From Mangrovicoccus sp. (GTDB taxonomy: Bacteria > Pseudomonadota > Alphaproteobacteria > Rhodobacterales > Rhodobacteraceae), in assembly GCA_025800345.1 (NCBI GenBank), contig JAOXSB010000163.1, forward strand, positions 1-54,833: a stretch of DNA of 54,833 nucleotides, read 5' to 3'. A program made the position numbers and the translations under genes. How positions within the stretch are numbered: the stretch's first letter is position 1; every line of letters starts with the position of its first letter. The notes beneath the pieces were generated by a model. It was not told the DNA's origin and did no database searches. It saw only the letters and a program-made list of their open reading frames with translations. This document shows positions 1 through 10,177 of the stretch, one piece after another.

Positions 1-659
1 CCTTTCTTTGCCGCCTTGCGCAATTCCGCCATTGCACTCTCTTGGGAGCGGGTTTCCTGAAACTGCTGGGCGATACTGGCATCCAGCCCAAGAAGGTATG
101 AAATCGCGACCTGCTGGTCCCAGTTCTGCTGCGGCCCAGACTGCTGAGTTGGTTGAACGAACCCACCACTTCCTTGTCGGCGTGCAAAGTAAGAAAAGAG
201 TGAACGGAATGTCGGACCGAACCGACTGATGGCATCCGGGTCTGTAGGAAGATCGAACAGCAATGCGCCAAGATCAGCTCGCCAGTTTATGTTCGACAGC
301 ACCAGGTCGCCAGACTTGTTGTCCAACTCGGGCTTGATCGGCCAATGCTCTGTCTCGCCAAGAAGCTTGATGCGCGCTGGTTTCATTCCAGAACGCGCTG
401 CAGAAATCGTATGTCCGCTAATGTCGGTCTGCATCTCGAATGTGTGCTGTTTCAGCTCATCGGAGCGAAAGATGCTATCGGGCTTAGCGTTACCGCCATA
501 TATGAAATGGACAAGCTCAACAAAACTGGTCTTCCCTGCCCCGTTTCGCGTTTGTCGATCTGTTGATTGTGCCGTCTTCTCAGCCAATAGGATATTGAGA
601 CCTGGCCCAAAATTGAGTGTCTTGAAACTGTCCAAATCACTTGTGAGATTGTGGATCAT
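1..659 (-). CDS. DUF2326-type ABC/SMC-like ATPase of an ABC-3C system (partial, 3' end beyond window)
   Basis: The reading frame begins at an ATG at 659 and runs off the left edge, so only about 219 N-terminal residues are visible. The start (MIHNLTSDLDSFKTLNFGPG) is followed by a P-loop reading RNGAGKTSFVEL at about residues 43-54. This fits the N-terminal half of an SMC/RecN-like ABC ATPase of the DUF2326 kind, whose coiled coil and signature/Walker B half would lie outside the window. Its ATG overlaps the stop of the upstream gene (ATGA), so the genes are translationally coupled. In ABC-3C conflict systems such an ATPase acts with a small middle component and a protein carrying an effector domain and a C-terminal domain, both of which lie immediately upstream. 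The P-loop is seen directly; the family comes from pattern recall and context. Confidence 0.75.
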   Translation of the reverse strand, partial: MIHNLTSDLDSFKTLNFGPGLNILLAEKTAQSTDRQTRNGAGKTSFVELVHFIYGGNAKPDSIFRSDELKQHTFEMQTDISGHTISAARSGMKPARIKLLGETEHWPIKPELDNKSGDLVLSNINWRADLGALLFDLPTDPDAISRFGPTFRSLFSYFARRQGSGGFVQPTQQSGPQQNWDQQVAISYLLGLDASIAQQFQETRSQESAMAELRKAAKK

Positions 660-901
660 AACACGCCCTTGCGAAGTAGGCCGTTTTCAAAACTCACCGC
701 TTTGGTAATAAACAAAAGATCTAGGGCGAGGATAAACCAATCATAGTTTATTGGAGCCCCACCCACCGCTTCACCGCGCTGCTTGCGCACCTCGTCCCAC
801 GCCCGTGAAACCGTCATGGGTTCCTTCATGCACGCAAGTATATCGGCGCCCACGGTGAGGAGCGCGCGTTCAGGGCGGATATGTTTGGTTGGTAGGATCA
901 T
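656..901 (-). CDS. ABC-3C middle component, MC6-like small protein
   Basis: This 81-residue soluble protein starts MILPTKHIRPERALLTVGAD and contains a central VSRAWDEVRKQR segment. I recognise this as the pattern of the short middle component (MC6 type) of ABC three-component systems. Its role in the family is to bridge the ATPase and the effector/CTD protein. It overlaps both neighbours by ATGA junctions (with the upstream gene at 898-901 and the downstream ATPase at 656-659), so stoichiometric co-translation is likely. There is no signal peptide or membrane segment. The family call rests on recalled motifs and on the perfect operon context. Confidence 0.7.
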   Translation of the reverse strand: MILPTKHIRPERALLTVGADILACMKEPMTVSRAWDEVRKQRGEAVGGAPINYDWFILALDLLFITKAVSFENGLLRKGVL

Positions 902-1809
902 GCGTCTGCCTCTTCCTCCACATAATCCTCAAAAATGTCGCAACGCTCGAAGAAATACGACATGACGGCCAAAACAGCGGCCTGATGCTGCGGCGTTCCG
1001 CCCATCCCGCCCGCGAAGTGTTGAAGCTCCATGAAAATATGTTCGGCGGTATGACCCTGCTGTTTCAAGTCCTGATACCGATCACGGAAGCCCTGAGCAA
1101 TCTCTTCGCCAAAATCCGGATTTGGAAACTGGTTGAAGAAGTCCTCGACCAGCCTCTCTCTACGACGCCCCTGACGGAGAAGTTCTGCAGCATCATCAGA
1201 AAGATCGTTTGCCTTCAGTTTTGACGCAGAAGGTGCCGCCAGGGGCGCGCTTTCGTCCGGATCAAGCCGCTGAATAACCATTACGACAGGTCGCAATGCC
1301 TCAAAATCGAGTTGCGCAAGTGTGCGTTGTGTTGGAGCCGGGCCGAACAAGTCTTCAAGTTGAGAAGGCGTCAAAGACATCGTGATTTCGAAAATCTCGG
1401 GATAGCTCATTTGGCCCAGCGATACGTTCGGGTTTGCCTTGCCAAGGTCTATCAACTGCTGAACCGCATCGGCAGGAAGGCCATCGTCGTCGTTGTGAAC
1501 AAAAGACCAACGCTCCATACGCGGGCCCCAATGGATGACTGCACCATTGAAATCTTCATCGACCTTCGCCTGAAGCTTATCGAGTTTTGTTGTCTTCGGC
1601 GCATAGCACTGGAAAACCGTTTTATCGCTCGCGCGATAACCATCGCATTTTAGGTCGCCTTTGTTTCCATATGGCCGCACCGCTTGGAAATCACCCGTGA
1701 AGGCATGCCCCATGATCCGCGAGAACAGATCCTCGAACGCCTTTCCTTGACTCTCAAGAAAAGCGATGCGGAACTTCAGTTGAAAAAAATGTCTTTGAAG
1801 CTCATCCAC
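898..1809 (-). CDS. ABC-3C effector: nuclease-like N-terminus plus C-terminal ABC-3C domain
   Basis: A 303-residue protein starting at a GTG that shares its G with the TAG stop of the upstream recombinase gene. The N-terminal ~110 residues (FEDLFSRIMGHAFTGDF, then YGNKGDLKCDGY and VFQCYAPK) have the E...GxxGD.kcDGy...QCYAPK layout of restriction-endonuclease-fold domains, with candidate catalytic acids and the lysine of the APK segment. The C-terminal ~120 residues (LLRQGRRRERLVEDFFNQFP ... ERCDIFEDY) match my recollection of ABC-3C C-terminal domains that dock to the ATPase complex. The likely role is DNA cleavage licensed by the ATPase during phage or plasmid attack; this is inference. The stop overlaps the MC6 start. 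Confidence 0.7.
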   Translation of the reverse strand: MDELQRHFFQLKFRIAFLESQGKAFEDLFSRIMGHAFTGDFQAVRPYGNKGDLKCDGYRASDKTVFQCYAPKTTKLDKLQAKVDEDFNGAVIHWGPRMERWSFVHNDDDGLPADAVQQLIDLGKANPNVSLGQMSYPEIFEITMSLTPSQLEDLFGPAPTQRTLAQLDFEALRPVVMVIQRLDPDESAPLAAPSASKLKANDLSDDAAELLRQGRRRERLVEDFFNQFPNPDFGEEIAQGFRDRYQDLKQQGHTAEHIFMELQHFAGGMGGTPQHQAAVLAVMSYFFERCDIFEDYVEEEADA

Positions 1810-2372
1810 TACTGGGTTCCTCCAATAGCGCGTTGAATTGTGCTTCGGTTCACCCCGAGTATTTCTGCCATGCCTGTTACGGTCTCTTGCTTTGCCGATA
1901 TTGCGGCCTTCGCGTGCTGGATCTGTGCAGGTGTCAGCGCCGGTGGACGGCCAAGACGCTTGCCGCGCTTTTTCGCGACTGCTAGGCCAGCTTTCGTACG
2001 TTCCTGGATCAAATCCCGCTCGAACTCAGCCAATGCCCCCATAATGTGGAATACCAGCCGACCGCCTGCTGTCGTTGTGTCTATCCCGTCCGTCAGGCTA
2101 CGGAATTCGATACCGCGATCACCGAACAACTTCAGAAGGTGGATCAAGTCAGCGATGGATCGTCCTACCCTGTCCAGCTTCCAGACAATCAGCAAGTCAC
2201 CCTTGCCAAGAAGATCCATCGCTTCGGAAAAACCGGTTCGGCTCTGAGCTGCTGTTGTTCCGCTTTTGGCCTGATCTGTTATGATGCGATCACATCCGGC
2301 TTCGGTCAGCGCCTCGACCTGTAAGTCTAGGTTCTGTTCTTCTGTAGATACTCGTGCGTAGCCGATTTTCAT
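1809..2372 (-). CDS. Serine recombinase, resolvase/invertase family (Tn3 resolvase-like)
   Basis: A 187-residue protein; the ATG at 2372 is preceded by AGGA at good spacing and gives the family-typical start MKIGYARVST, with catalytic Ser9. The catalytic domain continues through DRIITDQAKSG, LLIVWKLDRVGRS and GALAEFERDLIQERT, and a C-terminal helix-turn-helix (GMAEILGVNRSTIQRAI) is present. The length is normal for a small resolvase. The expected role is site-specific recombination between res sites, or resolution or inversion of element DNA. The gene is the first of the operon encoding the ABC-3C proteins and overlaps the next gene by one base. The upstream gap holds nested inverted repeats that could be its binding region. 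It could be a leftover of a Tn3-like element or a co-opted part of the defence operon. Confidence 0.88.
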   Translation of the reverse strand: MKIGYARVSTEEQNLDLQVEALTEAGCDRIITDQAKSGTTAAQSRTGFSEAMDLLGKGDLLIVWKLDRVGRSIADLIHLLKLFGDRGIEFRSLTDGIDTTTAGGRLVFHIMGALAEFERDLIQERTKAGLAVAKKRGKRLGRPPALTPAQIQHAKAAISAKQETVTGMAEILGVNRSTIQRAIGGTQ

Positions 2373-2687
2373 GGAATCCTTTTGCACGAGGTTTTTGCGG
2401 CAGTCCAGTACAATTGGAATCAAAGACTTAGCGGTAATGCGAAATGTGCCGCAAAAAGGGTCATTATTGCGGCACTGAAACGATAATTACCGTTCGACTA
2501 GAAAGCAGCAAAAGCCGAGAAAAGCCCATTTTTGACAAAAGCTGCGACCCTCGCGAATGACCGGTCTTCAGCAGACGGCCCAAAATGTGACAAAATCAAG
2601 TGAGTTTCACCAAGGGTTTTTGTCTCTGAGTTTTGTCAGTGCGTTTATGGCGTCAGCGTCATCAGGGTCGGGGGCCATTCAGATTGG
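2373..2687. repeat. Candidate res/operator region upstream of the resolvase gene
   Basis: This gene-free stretch has visible symmetry. A perfect inverted repeat GTGCCGCAA (2446-2454) / TTGCGGCAC (2467-2475) sits inside a second pair CGGTAAT (2432-2438) / ATTACCG (2486-2492). A further TTGCGGCA lies at 2395-2402, close to the resolvase start. Further left, TGACAAAA occurs at 2534-2541 and 2588-2595 and inverted at 2631-2638. Small resolvases normally bind a multi-subsite res region next to their own gene, so this is the obvious candidate, possibly doubling as operator for the operon. The spacing does not match a canonical Tn3 res layout by eye, so the call is tentative. Confidence 0.4.
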
Positions 2688-3506
2688 CTAACCAAGCCCC
2701 CAGATCATAGACTCGAAGTCAAGGCGATAAATTGATTTTAGCGGTTCCCTGACTTCAATTTCGATATCCTGACCAACGCCGTACTCAATTGTCAAATTTT
2801 TGGGTAAGATTGCCGGTCCGACAAGATAGTGCATCCAAAAATCCAATATCTGTTTGTCTGGAGTCATGATCATAGCCATAGGGACTACAAAGGCTTCGCC
2901 AGGTCCAAGGTCAGGTAGTGCAATGTCGCTGCGTATCGGACGCACATCGCCCACCTCTAGAAGGCATTCACCACCATCGTACTCATATAAGCAACCATCC
3001 TTTATGAGCTCATAGCCATAGTGAAACTGGAATATCTCCCGTGTAGTGCGGTCAAGTTCAAAGCGATCGACGGATAAATTGCCTGACTGCACCGGAACAT
3101 CACCGTGGTTCTTCACGACTAAGCCGAGGATGTAGCGCGTGTACGAGGACACGCAGCCACGCTCCGGGCAAATTTGCTGCGCGGTAAGGCGGGCATTCAC
3201 GCTCTCTAGGAGAGTCGCAGAGTAATCAGTTTCGTCCTGAACTGCTTCGGTCAACACTTCAGTCCGTAGGAATTTTAACCCGGCGAGAATCGCGAGGTCT
3301 TCCGAAGATTCCGCTTCTCCATCAACGATGGTGAGCGGCATCGCGATATAGGAAGCGACTATGGCAGGCGCGTCTTCTGGAGGCGCGCAGCACCAGGCAT
3401 AAATCTTTTCGCCTATACCGATCGAGCTGGCTGCCAAGCCGAGGACAAACGCCACCGCCGTCAAGAACCACCCTGGCTTGAACTTGCTTTCTGGGCCTTC
3501 TTCCAC
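2688..3506 (-). CDS. Unidentified membrane-anchored protein
   Basis: I do not recognise the family. The 272-residue product has one hydrophobic segment at about residues 14-32 (FLTAVAFVLGLAASSIGIG) after a short charged N-terminus, then a long, mostly beta-like, non-cytoplasmic-looking domain with several cysteines (CC, C..C, a CLYEYDGGECL loop). It therefore looks like a single-pass protein with a large periplasmic domain. The GTG start at 3506 has no strong ribosome binding site; a GAGG lies farther upstream, so the exact start is uncertain. It stands alone between the ABC-3C operon and the lanthipeptide locus, on the same strand as the nearest precursor gene but 244 bases away, so it need not belong to either. 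Confidence 0.55.
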   Translation of the reverse strand: MEEGPESKFKPGWFLTAVAFVLGLAASSIGIGEKIYAWCCAPPEDAPAIVASYIAMPLTIVDGEAESSEDLAILAGLKFLRTEVLTEAVQDETDYSATLLESVNARLTAQQICPERGCVSSYTRYILGLVVKNHGDVPVQSGNLSVDRFELDRTTREIFQFHYGYELIKDGCLYEYDGGECLLEVGDVRPIRSDIALPDLGPGEAFVVPMAMIMTPDKQILDFWMHYLVGPAILPKNLTIEYGVGQDIEIEVREPLKSIYRLDFESMIWGLG

Positions 3507-3750: not shown

Positions 3751-3975
3751 CTATGCCAGAGTTATACCGGTCCATGCGCAAGTGTATGAACATGAACTCG
3801 CGAGTTGTATACCGTCAAGATTGATTTCACGGGCAACATCTTCAGCAAGCTCAGGCGATAGCCCTTGTGATTTGAGCGTATCAATAGGTTCATTCTTTAG
3901 CTTCGATCTAAAATCTGTATCTGCAAGCGCGAGCTTGATGACCTCTTCAGCAATTTTTTTCTGCATCATCTTCAA
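3751..3975 (-). CDS. Lanthipeptide precursor 1 (NHLP/Nif11-like leader)
   Basis: A 74-residue peptide with a charged helical leader carrying FRSKLKNEP (residues 22-30) and LSPELAEDVAREI, then a short C-terminal core with two cysteines (C62, C66) among Ser/Thr residues (S60, S61, S63, T65, T69, T72), ending TLA. The leader resembles NHLP/Nif11-type RiPP leaders, and its FR[S/T][K/R]LKNEP block is repeated in the second precursor nearby. Modification by the adjacent lanthionine synthetase is expected: dehydration of Ser/Thr, then thioether rings to C62 and C66. The start is a TTG at 3975 with GAGG about six bases upstream; the ATG at 3969 is the alternative. It lies 13 bases after the RibF-like gene, hence co-transcribed with it. 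Final ring pattern and cleavage site are unknown. Confidence 0.75.
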   Translation of the reverse strand: MKMMQKKIAEEVIKLALADTDFRSKLKNEPIDTLKSQGLSPELAEDVAREINLDGIQLASSCSYTCAWTGITLA

Positions 3976-3988
3976 CTACATCCTCGAC

Positions 3989-4717
3989 CTAAAATTCACC
4001 CGGTCCTTTTATCACAGATAACAGGCCATGGCCACTTGTAAGAGGCTCATCGAAGTCTGGCACTCCGCTCTTAACAGAAAACTTCGTTAATGCTCCATCC
4101 TTATGATATCTGCCAACATAATTCCCATCAGCCCATTCAAGGCTGCGGCTCACCTGCCAATCAAGGGTAGGATAGTAACCAGTAGCTTCGTGAAACCTAG
4201 AAATACTTCCGCGGCGCAAAGCTTCGAAGACTTCCGTTCGGTGATATCTTTCCTTCATTTTTGGCAGCACACAGACTTTACAGGATGAACCTTCGAACCT
4301 TTTCTTTAGTCCTGCCAAAGAACCCTCTTTACCTCGTCCAATCGTTTGGTTTTGGCGCAACCATAACTCCCGGACTGAACATACACTGTTCAGGAGTTCA
4401 AAAAACACACCTGGCGAAGCTTCCAGGTCAGCCGCTGTCATACGGCATAGTACAACATTTTGCCCCGAATGATGCCGGATGCGATCAATGAGTTGTTCTA
4501 GGCCCTCAACATATGGAAGGTCGCAATCACCGTTTGCTTGACGCAGCAGAACGAATGGAGACGGGTACAACAGACAAACCACTGGCTTGAAATTTGATTT
4601 TTTTTCAAAGTCTTGAAGCAGTTCTGTATGATGAGAAATCCATGGAAAGAAGCTTCCTATATACAATGAGCACGGTTCCGGTGTGCCCTCAAATTTTGGA
4701 ACAAGACAAACATCCAT
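3989..4717 (-). CDS. RibF-like nucleotidyltransferase with degenerate HxGH motif, lanthipeptide-associated
   Basis: A 242-residue protein that follows the layout of the FMN adenylyltransferase half of bifunctional RibF: an N-terminal LYIGSFFPWISHHTELL where RibF has GNFDGVHxGH, then a strand and YPSPFVLLR (RibF: F.PHP...L), ASPGVFFELLNSV (RibF: SPEEFV..L), ELWLRQNQTIGRGKEGSL (RibF: vVGeDFrFGrgr.G) and TEVFEALRRGSISRFHEATG (RibF: TRIReAL..GD...A...LG). The first His-Gly of the nucleotide-binding motif and the SST-R motif are not conserved, so adenylyltransferase activity is doubtful or altered. It is encoded divergently from precursor 2 and the synthetase and directly upstream of precursor 1, which ties it to the lanthipeptide. 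It could install or bind a nucleotide or flavin cofactor, or act as a leader-binding scaffold; the role is unknown. Confidence 0.6.
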   Translation of the reverse strand: MDVCLVPKFEGTPEPCSLYIGSFFPWISHHTELLQDFEKKSNFKPVVCLLYPSPFVLLRQANGDCDLPYVEGLEQLIDRIRHHSGQNVVLCRMTAADLEASPGVFFELLNSVCSVRELWLRQNQTIGRGKEGSLAGLKKRFEGSSCKVCVLPKMKERYHRTEVFEALRRGSISRFHEATGYYPTLDWQVSRSLEWADGNYVGRYHKDGALTKFSVKSGVPDFDEPLTSGHGLLSVIKGPGEF

Positions 4718-4785
4718 GATGTACTTTCGCTTGATATTATGGAAAACTATGGACTAACTTTAAGCAATAGACGAGGGAGATTTTT
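4718..4785. promoter_or_regulatory. Divergent promoter region of the lanthipeptide locus
   Basis: Only 68 bases separate the leftward RibF-like/precursor 1 pair from the rightward precursor 2/synthetase pair, so both promoters must overlap here or lie partly inside the genes. The stretch is AT-rich, includes TTGATA-like and TATGG elements, and ends in GAGGGAGA five bases before the ATG of precursor 2, a strong ribosome binding site suited to high precursor expression. No clear operator palindrome is visible. The promoter call rests on the divergent arrangement. Confidence 0.5.
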
Positions 4786-5022
4786 ATGTCTGATTTAGAA
4801 GAAGCACGTTCAAAGGCTAACGCCATCATCCTGAAAGCTCTAGGCGATGAAGATTTTCGAACACGTCTGAAGAATGAGCCAATGGCAACCATGAAGGACG
4901 AAGGCGTAGAGGAGAAGCTCGCAGAAGAGCTTGGCATGGAACTTAAGGTCGACGGCGAACCTATCATTACAGCATGTATCGCTTTATCATGCAGCTTCCT
5001 TAGCTCTGTCACACTGGCTTAG
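4786..5022 (+). CDS. Lanthipeptide precursor 2 (NHLP/Nif11-like leader)
   Basis: A 78-residue peptide with a long acidic helical leader containing FRTRLKNEP (residues 24-32), nearly identical to the block in precursor 1, followed by EEKLAEELGMELKVDGEP. The C-terminal core holds two cysteines (C64, C69) with T62, S68, S70, S73, S74 and T76, and ends in the same TLA as precursor 1. A strong Shine-Dalgarno (GAGGGAGA) precedes the ATG. The synthetase gene starts 20 bases downstream, the normal lanA-lanL order. The leader should be recognised by the synthetase and the core converted to a one- or two-ring lanthipeptide. No double-glycine cleavage site and no dedicated protease or exporter gene is seen nearby. 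Confidence 0.78.
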   Translation: MSDLEEARSKANAIILKALGDEDFRTRLKNEPMATMKDEGVEEKLAEELGMELKVDGEPIITACIALSCSFLSSVTLA

Positions 5023-5042
5023 GATCGCATCAGAAAGTCTGA

Positions 5043-7379
5043 ATGCTAAACTGTTCATTTGACGCACCTGATCTGTTCAAGGAAACGAGCATTTCAGGAA
5101 TATACAGATGTGTCGCCCCCTCGCTCATCCCGCCCGGAAACTTTCGGGCTTGGAAAATCCACATATCTTCACGAACTGATACTGCGTCCGCCACCTTGGA
5201 TACGGTTTGGCGATCTGCAGCTATGCTTCAGTATTCCTTCAAATATGTAGCAAATTCTGATGATTTGGCTTCTTTGAATGAAGGCAACTTCGGGCTATCC
5301 CAAGTAGGAAAGTTTGTGACGATCTACCCTTCCTCTTCAATTCATCTAGAAGAGATAGTCTCCGATCTAACGAGCCGTTTGCCATCAACACACTCTCCTA
5401 GGGTTCCATTTGATTATCAACTCGCGAGCCATACTAACGTTTTTCTAAGGTATGGTGCTTTCAACTACCTCCCAATTAGAGAGCCCATTGGAGCGATCGC
5501 CCCAGCTTGGGTGGACGAGCGTGGAGACGCCATTCCCGACAGCAGAACATCTGCTTGCCCCGACGATGCACTCCTACAACTGAAAAATCACGGGATAGAT
5601 GTTCTTGCGAAGTGTAACCCACCTTTGCTTCAGAAGCGGTATGTGGCGACTGACCTGCTCCACCATGGCCCTCGCGGGAGCATCTTTCTTGGTGTAGACA
5701 CGGAAAAACTCTCTCAGGTGATCATCAAATCAGCGCACAGGTTAGATCGCATCAGTGAGCGCGACGGAAGAAGTTCCTATGACCGCCTCAAACATGAATA
5801 CCGTGCCCTATCCAATGCCTTTGAGTTGGGTATCTCACCGCAACCATATCTTTGCGAGGAGCAGGACGATTCTGCATTCTTGGTGATGGAGTACTTGGAA
5901 GGCACATCACTGCAGTCCCATATCCAGAAACGCCTCCTCTCTTGCCAAGAACCAGACCTCCATTTTGCCCGTAGTACATTCGATAAGCTCGTGGAAATCA
6001 ATGAAGCTCTTAGAAAGATTGGCATTCATCATGGAGATCTAAGCCCTCGAAACATAATTCTGTCACCGCAAGGTATGAAAATTATCGACTTTGAGCATGT
6101 CGTTTTTTCTGACGATCTAGCTTCGGGCGTTTGGGCGAGCGGCACCCCAGGCTTCTCAATGAAGCCAAAATTCGTCACATCTCAAACTGAGCTAGATGAA
6201 AGATGTCGATATAGTTTGGAAAGCATATTCTACTTTCTGGCCACAGGTAAGGACGGGTTGGGGAGTTTCCGAAATGCAAGTGAGGCGATTAAATGGGTGA
6301 GAAACCTTAGTAAGTTACCTCAGAATGACACAGAGCGCGTATCTTTACTCACAAGCTCGAAAGGTATGGCAGTTACCGAAGCAACTCACCATTTTCGGTC
6401 TGATGGGACATCGCTTTATGATGGCTTGTCAGGAAAAATATTTGCTTATCAATATCTAAACTGCACCTCGCAAACTCATGAACCGACATCAAACGCAGTC
6501 AAACTTGTAAAAAAACTTCGAGAAACGCCTCTACACCCTGGATTCTACGTGGGTGGCTTAGGTGTGGCGCATATTCTGCGACATTTTCTTGGTTCGCCCG
6601 ATGAAGCAGAAGTAGTAGAAAAAGAGGCATTTAATATACCCAACGCATCGCCCGACTTTCTAAATGGAAGAGCGGGTCAACTACGATATTTTTGCACAAA
6701 GTACCTTGCGGCAAAGGATACCGAAGACCTACTCACAGCAAAGCAGCTCGCAGAACGTCTCTGTGAAGAATACTCACACAACGAGGCAGGGTGGAAGATA
6801 CCTCAAGGTTACGGCGACCTGTCCAACAAAACTCATGTTGGCTATGCTCATGGAGCGGCCGGCATTGTTGACTGCCTGATTGACTACTATCGCATTTCTA
6901 GATGCTCCAAGTGCCTTGAAATAATTCGACACTTTGAATCCTCGCTCGCATCAAGATTTGAGATTCGTTCGGAAATGTGGACTTGGCCGGAGGGAGGACG
7001 CGATGGCGGCGGAGCGAGTTGGTGCCATGGCGCCGTCGGTATCGGGAGATTTTATCTGGGCTATTCTTGTTTGGATCAAAATCGCGCAAGTCTTATTGCT
7101 GAAGCGATATCAAAGTACCTGTTCGAGAATGCGAGATGGCAAGGGGTTCATTATTGCCACGGCTTAGCGGGAACTATTGATTTTCTTGTAGATACCGCCA
7201 AAATTTTTCGGAGCAGCACTAACATCCGAAGAGCAGCTTCGCTTTCTAATGACGCCATGGCGTTGATGCGCAGCGCTGAACTCCCATCAGACTCATTGTT
7301 CACAGGTGAACTGGGTCTAGCCTTGGTAACCGCAAAGCAAAAATATGGGCTGAGCGCTGATTTACTGCGTATGAAATAA
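5043..7379 (+). CDS. Class IV-like lanthionine synthetase (lyase-kinase-cyclase, LanL/LanKC family)
   Basis: A 778-residue three-domain enzyme. Residues ~1-200 correspond to the phosphoSer/Thr lyase region. Residues ~200-460 form a Ser/Thr kinase domain with a VIIK lysine (K229), catalytic loop HGDLSPRN (D332, N337) and a DFE metal motif (D349). Residues ~490-778 form a LanC-like cyclase with YAHG (H603), WCHG (C661) and YCHG (C705, H706). The last two supply the Cys-Cys-His zinc ligands that class III enzymes lack, hence the class IV-like call. It should phosphorylate and eliminate precursor Ser/Thr, then catalyse Cys addition, in the cytoplasm. The C-terminus ends soon after the SLFTGELGLALV block, about where LanC domains end. 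It lies 20 bases after precursor 2. Base composition is clearly lower in GC than the chromosome to the right. Confidence 0.85.
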   Translation: MLNCSFDAPDLFKETSISGIYRCVAPSLIPPGNFRAWKIHISSRTDTASATLDTVWRSAAMLQYSFKYVANSDDLASLNEGNFGLSQVGKFVTIYPSSSIHLEEIVSDLTSRLPSTHSPRVPFDYQLASHTNVFLRYGAFNYLPIREPIGAIAPAWVDERGDAIPDSRTSACPDDALLQLKNHGIDVLAKCNPPLLQKRYVATDLLHHGPRGSIFLGVDTEKLSQVIIKSAHRLDRISERDGRSSYDRLKHEYRALSNAFELGISPQPYLCEEQDDSAFLVMEYLEGTSLQSHIQKRLLSCQEPDLHFARSTFDKLVEINEALRKIGIHHGDLSPRNIILSPQGMKIIDFEHVVFSDDLASGVWASGTPGFSMKPKFVTSQTELDERCRYSLESIFYFLATGKDGLGSFRNASEAIKWVRNLSKLPQNDTERVSLLTSSKGMAVTEATHHFRSDGTSLYDGLSGKIFAYQYLNCTSQTHEPTSNAVKLVKKLRETPLHPGFYVGGLGVAHILRHFLGSPDEAEVVEKEAFNIPNASPDFLNGRAGQLRYFCTKYLAAKDTEDLLTAKQLAERLCEEYSHNEAGWKIPQGYGDLSNKTHVGYAHGAAGIVDCLIDYYRISRCSKCLEIIRHFESSLASRFEIRSEMWTWPEGGRDGGGASWCHGAVGIGRFYLGYSCLDQNRASLIAEAISKYLFENARWQGVHYCHGLAGTIDFLVDTAKIFRSSTNIRRAASLSNDAMALMRSAELPSDSLFTGELGLALVTAKQKYGLSADLLRMK

Positions 7380-7732: not shown

Positions 7733-8386
7733 CTAGTCGTTTTCGATATGCCAGCTGTTGGCAAGATCTGTCAGAGCGTAGTCGTCAGCCAAATCTTCGG
7801 CCACACGTTTAGTGACGTTGGAAATACTCTTTTCCGTGACTTTTGCGTTGACTGACCAAGAAGCTGCAGCCTCGGCTGCAACCCGCTGGATGTCGGCATC
7901 GTCAGCTGCAATATGCGAGTGCTCGGTCTGGCTGTCCTTCGAGAAGCGCTCTTTCAGGCTCAGGTACAGTTGAATAGCAAGAGCGGCATCCGACTTGCGT
8001 TGTTCGACCGGGGCGTTCTCGAAACTGCTTCCGAAAATCTCATGGAATTCTAGGTCGCCCTCTTTTGCGACCCTTTCTATCAGATCGCTTGGAATGCTGC
8101 GTTGCCCGGTCTCATAATTATACAATGCGCGTCGAGTAATGCCCATTGCCTCTGCAAACTCATTGCGAGTCATTCCTCGGAACTCGCGGCAAGTCTTCAG
8201 CCCTCGAGCAATACTCAAACTCCTTCTGCTGGTTTGAAGTTTTTGCTTGCGTAAAAAGCGTTCTCTTCGCTCGATGCCCTCTTTTGTTATTCTATTATCT
8301 TCTCTGATTCGGGCAGCACGATGCTGTGGACTGCGCTTGCGCTTCGCTTCTCTATTGAATTGTTCTAAAAATTGACTTCGGTTCAT
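7733..8386 (-). CDS. XRE-family transcriptional regulator
   Basis: A 217-residue protein with a basic N-terminal region (~1-60), a Cro/CI-type helix-turn-helix (LKTCREFRGMTRNEFAEAMGITRRALYNYETGQRSIP, about residues 64-100) and a C-terminal regulatory region of unknown fold. The ATG at 8386 is preceded by AAGGA at six-base spacing, so I prefer it to the upstream in-frame start. It is divergent from the excisionase-like and integrase genes, the usual arrangement for an element-encoded repressor that controls excision and its own synthesis across a shared ~140-base region. Confidence 0.75.
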   Translation of the reverse strand: MNRSQFLEQFNREAKRKRSPQHRAARIREDNRITKEGIERRERFLRKQKLQTSRRSLSIARGLKTCREFRGMTRNEFAEAMGITRRALYNYETGQRSIPSDLIERVAKEGDLEFHEIFGSSFENAPVEQRKSDAALAIQLYLSLKERFSKDSQTEHSHIAADDADIQRVAAEAAASWSVNAKVTEKSISNVTKRVAEDLADDYALTDLANSWHIEND

Positions 8387-8529
8387 GGGTGATCCTTGGA
8401 GCTTAATAAAGCGCTTTGGGAACATGCGTTCTCACTGAGATGCTAACATCAAAATCCGAAAATGAAAGCTAGATAGCCTACAAAATCACGCAATAACTTG
8501 CAGTTATCCGCAGTTGGGAGTGCAAGCTA

Positions 8530-8825: not shown

Positions 8826-9017
8826 ATGCCGAGCCCTCGATCCCCTTCAATGCCCACAGAGCGCCAGATCAAAGAAGCCTACAAGGTTGCTCGTGAACTG
8901 TGTCCTGGTGTGCGCATAAAGGGCGTGGGGCCTGAGGGCGTAATCTTTGACTATCCTGATCGTGACGAGACAAGCCACGAATGGGAAGGCCAGCCCTTTT
9001 CAGGAGATGCCGCATGA
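8826..9017 (+). CDS. Small hypothetical protein coupled to the integrase
   Basis: I do not recognise this 63-residue protein. A helical segment (PTERQIKEAYKVARELCPGV) is followed by a beta-rich part (RIKGVGPEGVIFDYPDRDE). Its stop overlaps the integrase ATG (ATGA at 9014-9017), and similar small genes commonly sit directly upstream of tyrosine integrases in alphaproteobacterial islands. Either ATG 8826 or ATG 8850 could be the start. Its role, perhaps modulating integrase expression, is unproven. Confidence 0.5.
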   Translation: MPSPRSPSMPTERQIKEAYKVARELCPGVRIKGVGPEGVIFDYPDRDETSHEWEGQPFSGDAA

Positions 9018-10018
9018 AAAAACTACCTTATCTACGTTCTAAACTGCGCCGTGGACGTTGGTTTCACACATATCGTCGCGGCGATGTTGAGCGGTCTCTA
9101 GGTGTCCATGGACTGCACCCGAAAGATCCCAAAGTCTTGGCCGCATGGGCAGCAGAACACGCGCGTTGGCAGGAAATGCCTCCGGATACCGATACCCCTG
9201 AGGCAGGAACATTTGCTTGGGCGCTGGATCTCTACATCTCCGGCAATCAGAAATGGGCAAAGTATGCAGAAGGAACACGCGCGGCCCGATCTGCGATCTT
9301 TGCGCGCTACCGCAAGACTCAGGGCGCGCGCCCGGTCAAGACGATCACGGGCGAAGTTGTAGAACGCGCCCTGTATGCAAAGGGCGGGCATGGTGCTGTA
9401 AACGAGCACAAAGCGCTCAAGCCGGTCTTTGAACACCTCCGTCGCTTGGGTTTCATCCGCAAAAATCCATTGGTCGGGATCGAGTTAGATAAACCCAAGA
9501 TTAAAGGATTTCCTGTCGCCGATGCAGAAGACATTGAAGCCTTCCAAAAGCGCTGGCCAGTGGGCACTCGTGAACGCCTGATTTTTGATTTGGGTTTATT
9601 TACTGGCGCGGCTCGCACTGATCTAGCCAAACTAGGCCGGAAGAACATCAAGGGCGACCTGTTAGTCTATGAGCGCCAAAAAAGTGGGATAATCGCGCGT
9701 GTGCCGCTTACGGCTGAACTCCGAGCGGCCATCAATCGCACTCCAGATATTGCTCCCGCATTTATCCTTACCGGTGCCGGTAAGCCTTTCAAGGCCACAA
9801 GTCTGGGTAATGAATTCGGCGGCGCAGCTCGCGAAGCTGGGATAGCTTCTCGCCTTCATGGCCTGCGCAAAGCTTTCTGCATTTATTGGGCTGAAAACGA
9901 CGCGACCACTCACCAGATCGCGGCGATGGCTGGGCATATGAGCCTTTCTGAGGTAGAGCGTTATACGCGCGCTGCTGATCGTGAACGAATGGTCAAGTTG
10001 CTAGTAGGGGTCGCCTAG
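9014..10018 (+). CDS. Tyrosine recombinase (integrase) of the element
   Basis: A 334-residue phage-type integrase. An N-terminal arm-binding-like basic region and a SAM-like core-binding domain (~65-155) precede the catalytic domain with R201 (TGAARTDL), K223 (QKSG), H282-x-x-R285 (HGLR), H308 (GHMS) and nucleophile Y317 (ERYTRA): the complete RKHRHY set. The ATG at 9014 has CAGGAGA upstream; the in-frame start at 8981 lies inside the preceding gene. The gene points at, and ends 83 bases from, the 3' end of tRNA-Arg(CCT), the classic integrase/attachment-site layout. It should catalyse insertion and, with the excisionase-like protein, excision of the island. Confidence 0.92.
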   Translation: MKKLPYLRSKLRRGRWFHTYRRGDVERSLGVHGLHPKDPKVLAAWAAEHARWQEMPPDTDTPEAGTFAWALDLYISGNQKWAKYAEGTRAARSAIFARYRKTQGARPVKTITGEVVERALYAKGGHGAVNEHKALKPVFEHLRRLGFIRKNPLVGIELDKPKIKGFPVADAEDIEAFQKRWPVGTRERLIFDLGLFTGAARTDLAKLGRKNIKGDLLVYERQKSGIIARVPLTAELRAAINRTPDIAPAFILTGAGKPFKATSLGNEFGGAAREAGIASRLHGLRKAFCIYWAENDATTHQIAAMAGHMSLSEVERYTRAADRERMVKLLVGVA

Positions 10019-10100: not shown

Positions 10101-10177
10101 TGGCGACCCCGGCAGGATTTGAACCTGCAACCTATCCCTTAGGAGGGGATTGCTCTATCCAATTGAGCCACGGGGCC
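10101..10177 (-). tRNA. tRNA-Arg (anticodon CCT); attachment site of the element
   Basis: The minus strand reads acceptor GGCCCCG, D arm GCTC/GAGC, anticodon stem ATCCC/GGGAT around loop CTCCTAA (anticodon CCT), T stem GCAGG/CCTGC around TTCAAAT, acceptor CGGGGTC, discriminator G and an encoded CCA. All stems pair, with one G-U in the acceptor. It decodes AGG. The 3' end faces the integrase, so the recombination core should lie in the 3' half and remain intact after integration. No second copy of the tRNA 3' segment is visible at lower coordinates, so the other junction lies outside the window. Confidence 0.96.

What the first reader, a model, noticed from the sequence alone, without database searches (positions are those of the whole stretch)
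3751..7379. Compact class IV-like lanthipeptide locus in an alphaproteobacterial genomic island
The sequence shows two small precursor peptides with a shared leader block and a 778-residue lyase-kinase-cyclase enzyme that keeps the zinc ligands C661, C705 and H706. Three-domain synthetases with zinc ligands (class IV) are known mainly from actinobacteria. Here the genes sit in a tRNA-borne island beside a defence operon, with no obvious transporter or protease. Product structure and role are unknown.
Basis: partly seen in the sequence, partly recalled or inferred. Interest (0 to 1): 0.88.

Follow-up and report, generated by a model that had tools for sequence, protein, structure and literature searches.

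The report
Divergent class IV-type lanthipeptide locus
A horizontally acquired gene set in an alphaproteobacterium probably makes two small ring-containing peptides with one three-part enzyme of the zinc-using (class IV) type, using a precursor leader family previously reported only with a different enzyme class, plus an unexplained companion protein.

Summary
Window 3751-7379 encodes two homologous precursors, and a 778-aa lyase-kinase-LanC enzyme whose zinc ligands are exactly C661, C705 and H706. Lyase (7 of 8 mapped) and kinase residues are also kept. The best whole-chain solved structure is CuvL, by memory a class IV synthetase (Z 28, versus 24 for class III ThurKC). In trees the enzyme leaves both the zinc-less LanKC clade and the canonical actinobacterial LanL clade. 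It joins zinc-bearing three-domain enzymes from a Paracoccaceae MAG, Chloroflexota, Rhodococcus and Nocardioides, but on a long branch. It fails the curated LanL cut-off (332 of 650 bits), so it works like a LanL without being a canonical one. The precursors belong to the NHLP leader clan, as do precursors beside the Chloroflexota relatives; a published survey named NHLP leaders only among its class II families. A 242-aa gene between the precursors is a degenerate FAD-synthetase-like protein. The 'tRNA-borne island' is plausible (integrase next to tRNA-Arg, low GC, candidate defence genes PDC-M68), but no second att site or empty site was found, and the island's far side is off the contig. Product, export and role are untested. 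New variant of a known kind.

The parts
4786..5022 (+). Precursor peptide B (78 aa), NHLP-clan leader; C-terminal part ...KVDG-EPIITACIALSCSFLSSVTLA with two Cys
   Evidence: ORF with ribosome-binding site GAGGGAG; Os1348/NHLP model E 3e-5, below cut-off; homologous to precursor A
3751..3975 (-). Precursor peptide A (74 aa from TTG; in-frame ATG at 3969), NHLP-clan leader; C-terminal part ...NLDG-IQLASSCSYTCAWTGITLA with two Cys
   Evidence: Os1348/NHLP model E 2e-4, below cut-off; 40% identity over 68 aa to B; no further copies in the genome above noise
5043..7379 (+). Three-domain lanthipeptide synthetase (778 aa), class IV-type
   Evidence: Pfam RamC_N, Pkinase, LANC_like; NCBIfam LanL 331.6 bits; AF2 model matches CuvL over 703 residues
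5151..5552 (+). Lyase domain; K38, H40, K67, K90, D124, R136, R168 correspond to ThurKC K65, H67, K94, K117, D152, R163, R191; ThurKC K108 corresponds to G81
   Evidence: phmmer alignment to 8sao read against PMC10604976
5622..6362 (+). Kinase domain with K229, D332, N337, D349; C-lobe short and poorly modelled
   Evidence: invariant in 13-sequence alignment; pLDDT under 50 at 407-461
6405..7349 (+). LanC cyclase domain with zinc ligands C661 (7023-7025), C705 and H706 (7155-7160)
   Evidence: C661 and C705 invariant, H706 nearly invariant in 13 relatives
3989..4717 (-). 242-aa degenerate FAD-synthetase-like (nucleotidyltransferase-type) protein, directly upstream of precursor A
   Evidence: PF06574 E 0.0085 over 7-150 of 158, below cut-off; top of 1919 sequences against a RibF profile, E 0.0094; motif sites changed
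4718..4785 (.). 68-base divergent intergenic region, inferred shared promoter region for both gene pairs
   Evidence: gene layout; no promoter scan was run
8981..10018 (+). Tyrosine integrase (context of the island)
   Evidence: PF00589 E 1.3e-11
10101..10177 (-). tRNA-Arg(CCT), presumed attachment site (context)
   Evidence: ARAGORN; no second copy of its 3' end in the genome
3..1809 (-). Candidate defence genes PDC-M68B (3-659, cut by contig start) and PDC-M68A / ABC-3C CTD10 (898-1809) (context)
   Evidence: PADLOC E 1.2e-50 and 4e-24; Pfam CTD10 E 1.2e-15

Best explanation
This is a compact lanthipeptide biosynthetic locus. The synthetase most likely binds the helical NHLP-type leader of each precursor, and its kinase domain phosphorylates Ser/Thr in the C-terminal segment. 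The lyase domain would remove phosphate to give Dha/Dhb. The zinc-bearing LanC domain would add the two conserved Cys thiols to make up to two (methyl)lanthionine rings in each of two related peptides. The leader is presumably removed, and the peptide exported, by proteins encoded off this contig or elsewhere in the genome. The FAD-synthetase-like protein is probably part of the unit, as a tailoring or accessory protein (inferred). SHOWN by sequence: the genes, domain order, conserved catalytic and zinc residues, precursor homology, NHLP-clan relationship of leaders here and in relatives, and composition. INFERRED: every reaction, ring count, leader cleavage, export and biological role.
For: Domain matches. 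Lyase residues of biochemically tested ThurKC kept at 7 of 8 positions. Kinase K229, D332, N337, D349 and zinc C661 and C705 invariant, H706 nearly so, across 13 relatives. AF2 model (pLDDT 73) best matches CuvL across the whole chain, Z 28.1 with 703 aligned, versus ThurKC Z 24.1. The four best hits of a precursor A/B profile among 3154 ORFs of relatives' loci are all near their own lyase-kinase genes (L014 8299-8697, L015 12563-12910 and 7104-7682, Salipiger L009 7374-7706). NHLP/Os1348 models hit L014, L015, L016 and L009 peptides as well. The four genes share GC 0.44-0.475 and GC3 0.40-0.47, unlike the rest of the island (0.50-0.55) or chromosome (0.59-0.62).
Against: No biochemical evidence. 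Scores of enzyme and precursors are below all curated cut-offs. The enzyme is a long branch with a short, poorly modelled kinase C-lobe. ThurKC K108 is Gly81 here. No protease or exporter is linked, whereas Chloroflexota and Rhodococcus relatives have S8 peptidases nearby. No close orthologue exists to show conservation of the four-gene arrangement: only one relative in 395 sampled family genomes, at 32% identity. The start codon of the enzyme has no strong ribosome-binding site.
Confidence: 0.82

Rival explanations
1. The enzyme belongs with class III (LanKC): its nearest true kin are metal-independent synthetases and the zinc residues are incidental or secondarily regained.
For: The lyase-kinase half aligns with class III ThurKC, PneKC and SalKC. 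With the sister removed, a clade with LanKC is not formally rejected (p-AU 0.059; cyclase domain alone 0.215).
Against: All three zinc ligands are kept, as in the whole related set, while ThurKC has S726/F770/D771 there and the LanKC references searched lack the motifs. LanL model ahead of LanKC by 93 bits. Both trees leave it on the zinc-bearing side. Best structure is CuvL.
Confidence: 0.08
2. The locus is decaying or inactive: precursors and enzyme are intact open frames but the island lost its protease, exporter and perhaps regulation.
For: No protease or transporter on this contig's part of the island; no C39 peptidase in the assembled genome; single, divergent copy; shortened kinase C-lobe.
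Against: All four frames are intact, active-site residues are kept, both precursors retain homologous leaders and Cys positions. Class III and IV clusters often lack a linked protease; ThurKC's was encoded elsewhere in the genome.
Confidence: 0.1
3. The 242-aa FAD-synthetase-like protein is a functional nucleotidyltransferase that adenylates or otherwise nucleotidylates the peptide (or makes a flavin-type cofactor for the pathway).
For: It precedes precursor A by 13 bases on the same strand and shares its composition; whole-domain match to FAD synthetase, best of 1919 sequences.
Against: The match is weak and a direct alignment with the genome's own RibF is no better than shuffles. The HxGH site reads IxHH and the SSTxxR site reads HRTxxF. 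The single-sequence model is unusable (pLDDT 37.5). No partner flavoenzyme is seen.
Confidence: 0.12
4. The lanthipeptide is part of anti-phage defence (chemical or abortive), since it sits beside PDC-M68 genes.
For: PDC-M68A/B in the same island; lanthipeptide clusters and phage-defence genes co-localise, shown for class II (PMC12715929).
Against: Co-location on mobile islands is expected without shared function. The module is separate in composition and is not in the defence operon.
Confidence: 0.06

Closest known systems
Class IV lanthipeptide synthetase LanL (VenL, SgbL, CuvL)
   Same: Lyase-kinase-LanC order, zinc ligands, adjacent small precursors; nearest curated model is LanL and nearest whole structure is CuvL 8cav
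   Different: Below LanL cut-off (332/650 bits), outside the canonical LanL clade, about 80-150 residues shorter, NHLP-clan precursors instead of ALQxL-type peptides such as those beside Kitasatospora LanL
Unnamed zinc-bearing three-domain enzymes of Chloroflexota/Thermomicrobiales (L014-L016), Rhodococcus L010, Nocardioides L013, Paracoccaceae MAG L011
   Same: Zinc motifs; in L014-L016 also NHLP-type precursors with a [VL][DEQ]G motif before the Cys-rich segment
   Different: 24-32% identity; no FAD-synthetase-like gene found in them; three of these loci carry S8 peptidases
Class III LanKC (ThurKC, PneKC, SalKC)
   Same: Domain order and lyase/kinase residues
   Different: LanKC lacks the zinc ligands and may form labionin
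NHLP-leader class II lanthipeptides (LanM)
   Same: Leader clan (NHLP/Os1348) reported in class II families II 2, 13, 17, 25, 29 (PMC7268733)
   Different: No LanM dehydratase; no GG-type C39 site at the leader end
FAD synthetase / RibF N-terminal module (PF06574)
   Same: Whole-module similarity of the 242-aa protein
   Different: Catalytic motifs altered, no riboflavin-kinase module; genome has its own intact RibF

Membership tests
[quoted passage not shown]
   Pfam RamC_N, Pkinase, LANC_like; whole-chain structural match to CuvL
Class IV lanthipeptide synthetase (LanL) | Three zinc ligands in the cyclase domain (C, C, H) | tested here: met
   C661, C705, H706, aligned in 13 relatives; metal binding itself not measured
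Class IV lanthipeptide synthetase (LanL) | Score over curated NCBIfam LanL equivalog cut-off | tested here: not met
   331.6 of 650 bits; S. clavuligerus control scores 1216
Class IV lanthipeptide synthetase (LanL) | Falls in one clade with canonical LanL | tested here: not met
   Tree; AU test p 0.0009, with the caveat of a long branch
Class IV lanthipeptide synthetase (LanL) | Makes (methyl)lanthionine in a cognate precursor | not testable with these tools
   Needs co-expression and mass spectrometry
Class III lanthipeptide synthetase (LanKC) | Cyclase without zinc ligands | tested here: not met
   All three ligands present
Class III lanthipeptide synthetase (LanKC) | Falls in the LanKC clade | tested here: inconclusive
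   Best trees exclude it, AU p 0.0435 / 0.059 / 0.215
NHLP-clan RiPP precursors | NHLP/Os1348 leader model match | tested here: inconclusive
   E 3e-5 and 2e-4, below curated cut-offs 40 and 50.9 bits; relatives' precursors behave the same
NHLP-clan RiPP precursors | Double-glycine (GG/AG) leader end with a C39 exporter | tested here: not met
   Leaders end ...VDG-EPI and ...LDG-IQL; no C39 domain in the assembled genome
FAD synthetase (RibF N-terminal module) | Pfam gathering score and HxGH / SSTxxR motifs | tested here: not met
   16.4 of 27 bits; IxHH at residues 27-30, HRTxxF at 159-164
tRNA-borne integrative island | Integrase next to a tRNA 3' end and foreign composition | tested here: met
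tRNA-borne integrative island | Duplicated attachment site or an empty site in a relative | tested here: inconclusive
   No second copy of the tRNA 3' end in the draft genome; sister genome has the two flanks on different contigs; contig cut at base 1

The most novel reading that the evidence does not exclude
A largely undescribed, mostly non-actinobacterial branch of zinc-dependent three-domain synthetases works on NHLP-clan precursors. In this member the pathway adds a nucleotide-derived (or other) tailoring step carried out by a repurposed FAD-synthetase-like protein encoded with precursor A, giving a modified two-peptide lanthipeptide.
Probability: 0.12. Interest if true: 0.75.

Novelty: new variant of a known kind. 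Interest (0 to 1): 0.5.

Why it matters
A 2025 review states that class IV lanthipeptides are found only in Actinobacteria and Firmicutes (PMC12328550), with one Chondromyces product as an exception (PMC9576775). The survey behind that view named NHLP leaders only among its class II families (PMC7268733). If confirmed, this locus and its relatives would show that class IV-type chemistry is spread over several more phyla and that NHLP leaders can feed a lyase-kinase-cyclase enzyme. That bears on how leader recognition and synthetase classes were recombined in evolution, and gives new substrates and enzymes for peptide engineering.

Tried and rejected
(1) Single-sequence scans of genome and viral contigs with the enzyme found no relatives; the alignment-based scan of viral contigs also failed. 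(2) The 242-aa protein had no relatives in plasmids, viral contigs or 296 family genomes; its single-sequence AF2 model was useless (pLDDT 37.5), so no fold search was run on it. Direct comparison with the genome's RibF gave nothing; only the profile comparison supports kinship. (3) Linked C39 peptidase/exporter: none in the assembled genome. (4) Further precursors in the genome: none above noise. (5) Duplicated att site and empty site: not found. (6) Class II LanM: rejected, since no LanM dehydratase domain was matched and the LanM model hits only the cyclase part. (7) PADLOC hits of the enzyme (PD-T4-6, mad6) cover only the kinase and are the general kinase relationship, not a defence assignment.
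Full report
1. What is there. The window is one whole contig (54,833 bases) of a 3.38 Mb draft genome. Four genes form two divergent pairs around a 68-base gap. On the plus strand lie precursor B (4786-5022) and the synthetase (5043-7379). On the minus strand lie a 242-aa gene (3989-4717) and precursor A (3751-3975). The two precursors are homologous along their length (40% identity over 68 aa; score 136, best of 2000 shuffles 60). They share the leader block DFR-KLKNEP, two Cys in the C-terminal segment and the end TLA. No third copy is found in the genome.

2. The enzyme. Pfam finds the RamC N-terminal lyase domain, a kinase and a LanC domain. NCBIfam ranks LanL first (331.6 bits, cut-off 650), then LanKC (238.8, cut-off 575). 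The lyase residues tested by mutation in ThurKC (PMC10604976) were mapped through the alignment with chain 8sao. Seven of eight are kept: K38, H40, K67, K90, D124, R136, R168; ThurKC K108 is G81. The kinase residues K229, D332, N337, D349 and the zinc ligands C661 and C705 are invariant, and H706 nearly so, in 13 zinc-bearing relatives. Class III ThurKC has Ser, Phe and Asp at the zinc positions, and the LanKC references fetched here lack the motifs. An AlphaFold model built with these relatives (mean pLDDT 73.4; kinase C-lobe 407-461 unreliable) has its best whole-chain match in CuvL, 8cav/8car: Z 28, 703 residues aligned, against Z 24 for ThurKC. CuvL is named in the PDB title as the trifunctional synthetase of curvocidin; that it is class IV rests on my own knowledge. 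In the alignment with CuvL its third zinc position reads Cys, not His.

3. Relatives and phylogeny. The enzyme is rare. Among 395 sampled genomes of its family only one Paracoccaceae MAG has a relative (32% identity, cut at its contig end), and 385 sampled genomes of the class gave no other match. An alignment-based scan of species genomes found three-domain relatives with the zinc motifs in Chloroflexota, Actinomycetota, Pseudomonadota (Massilia, Maricaulis, an alphaproteobacterial MAG), Cyanobacteriota and Myxococcota. One was already known in Haematobacter on a plasmid. In the full-length tree the window groups with the MAG (100/99) inside a set with Chloroflexota, Rhodococcus and Nocardioides (97/96). 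It lies outside the LanKC clade (100/100) and outside the canonical LanL clade. The cyclase-only tree agrees. The branches are long. Holding the window with canonical LanL is rejected (p-AU 0.0009). Holding window plus MAG with LanKC is rejected only marginally (0.0435; 0.059 without the MAG; 0.215 on the cyclase alone).

4. The precursors are NHLP-like. Both window peptides match the NHLP-clan models weakly (E 3e-5 and 2e-4, below cut-offs). A profile made of just the two was run against 3154 ORFs of the relatives' loci. Its four best hits are small Cys-containing ORFs near the lyase-kinase genes of L014, L015 (two) and Salipiger L009. NHLP models hit peptides in L014, L015, L016 and L009 as well. 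A motif [VL][DEQ]G precedes the Cys-rich segment in the window and Chloroflexota peptides. The second group (Haematobacter, Massilia, Cellulomonas and others) has upstream peptides with a similar leader (AKxDPxFFxxLIFxPE) and repeated Cys-rich cores. A survey of lanthipeptide clusters named NHLP leaders only among class II families (PMC7268733). A 2025 review places class IV only in Actinobacteria and Firmicutes (PMC12328550), although one Chondromyces class IV product has been made (PMC9576775). I found no paper in the held library that describes NHLP leaders with LanL-type enzymes; absence there is not proof of absence.

5. The 242-aa gene. It has a sub-threshold match to FAD synthetase over the whole module (E 0.0085). 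It ranks first of 1919 sequences (decoys and shuffles) against a profile of 30 RibF proteins (E 0.0094). The nucleotidyl-transfer motifs are altered: GxFDGxHxGH reads GSFFPWISHH (residues 21-30), and SSTxxR reads HRTxxF (159-164). The riboflavin-kinase module is missing, and the genome has a normal RibF elsewhere. No relatives were found. Its position 13 bases before precursor A and its shared base composition (GC3 0.40, like precursor A) suggest it belongs to the unit. Its function is open; I hold a catalytic tailoring role at about 12%.

6. Context. A tyrosine integrase (8981-10018) lies next to the 3' end of tRNA-Arg (10101-10177). GC falls from about 0.60 right of the tRNA to 0.45-0.55 left of it, and the four genes are lower still (0.44-0.475). 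The island is therefore likely, not proven, and its far end is off the contig. No exporter or leader protease is visible; no C39 domain occurs in the assembled genome. Relatives in Chloroflexota and Rhodococcus have S8 peptidases nearby, and class III proteases are known to lie elsewhere in a genome (PMC10604976). Lanthipeptide clusters next to defence genes are documented for class II (PMC12715929).

7. Mechanism. Leader binding, phosphorylation of Ser/Thr, phosphate elimination and zinc-assisted Cys addition follow from established work on LanKC and LanL. None of it was tested for this enzyme. Each C-terminal segment holds two Cys, so at most two thioether rings per peptide are possible. Whether the two peptides act together is unknown.

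8. Verdict. A real, intact, divergent class IV-type lanthipeptide locus. It works like a LanL system but is not a canonical member. Its distinctive features are the NHLP-clan leaders and the FAD-synthetase-like companion. New variant of a known kind; moderate interest.

Noticed in passing
L008 7372-7851; L022 8964-9422; L031 8915-9415; L023 361-738; L021 9236-9703; L033 9306-9851: Upstream of zinc-bearing three-domain enzymes in Haematobacter, Massilia, Cellulomonas, an alphaproteobacterial MAG, a cyanobacterium and Maricaulis lie precursors with an NHLP-like leader and Cys-rich cores, in several cases tandemly repeated (for example CGNTCTSSCDNTCGGSCGFTTNLTD twice in L031). This looks like a broad, little-described family.
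   Followed up: partly
L009 7035-7319, 7374-7706, 7821-9407: Salipiger plasmid: two Thr/Cys-containing NHLP-like peptides before a 528-aa lyase-kinase protein without a cyclase domain, followed by a methyltransferase gene.
   Followed up: no
L019, L025, L026, L029, L030, L032, L073: Lyase-kinase proteins of about 380-490 aa without a LanC domain in Acidobacteria, Verrucomicrobia and Actinomycetota; a possible dehydratase-only RiPP family, though some may be truncated.
   Followed up: no
window 3-1809 (-): PADLOC candidate system PDC-M68 (ABC-3C-like with CTD10), cut by the contig start.
   Followed up: partly
window 1809-2423 (-): Resolvase/invertase-type serine recombinase inside the island.
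   Followed up: no
window 2688-3506 (-): 272-aa protein with one likely N-terminal membrane segment and no family match, next to precursor A; possible immunity or unrelated island gene.
   Followed up: no
window 7733-8425 (-): XRE-type regulator beside the synthetase.
   Followed up: no
L102 1091-6334: In Streptomyces sp. NBC_01351 a lanKC gene lies inside a cluster annotated as daptide biosynthesis.
   Followed up: no
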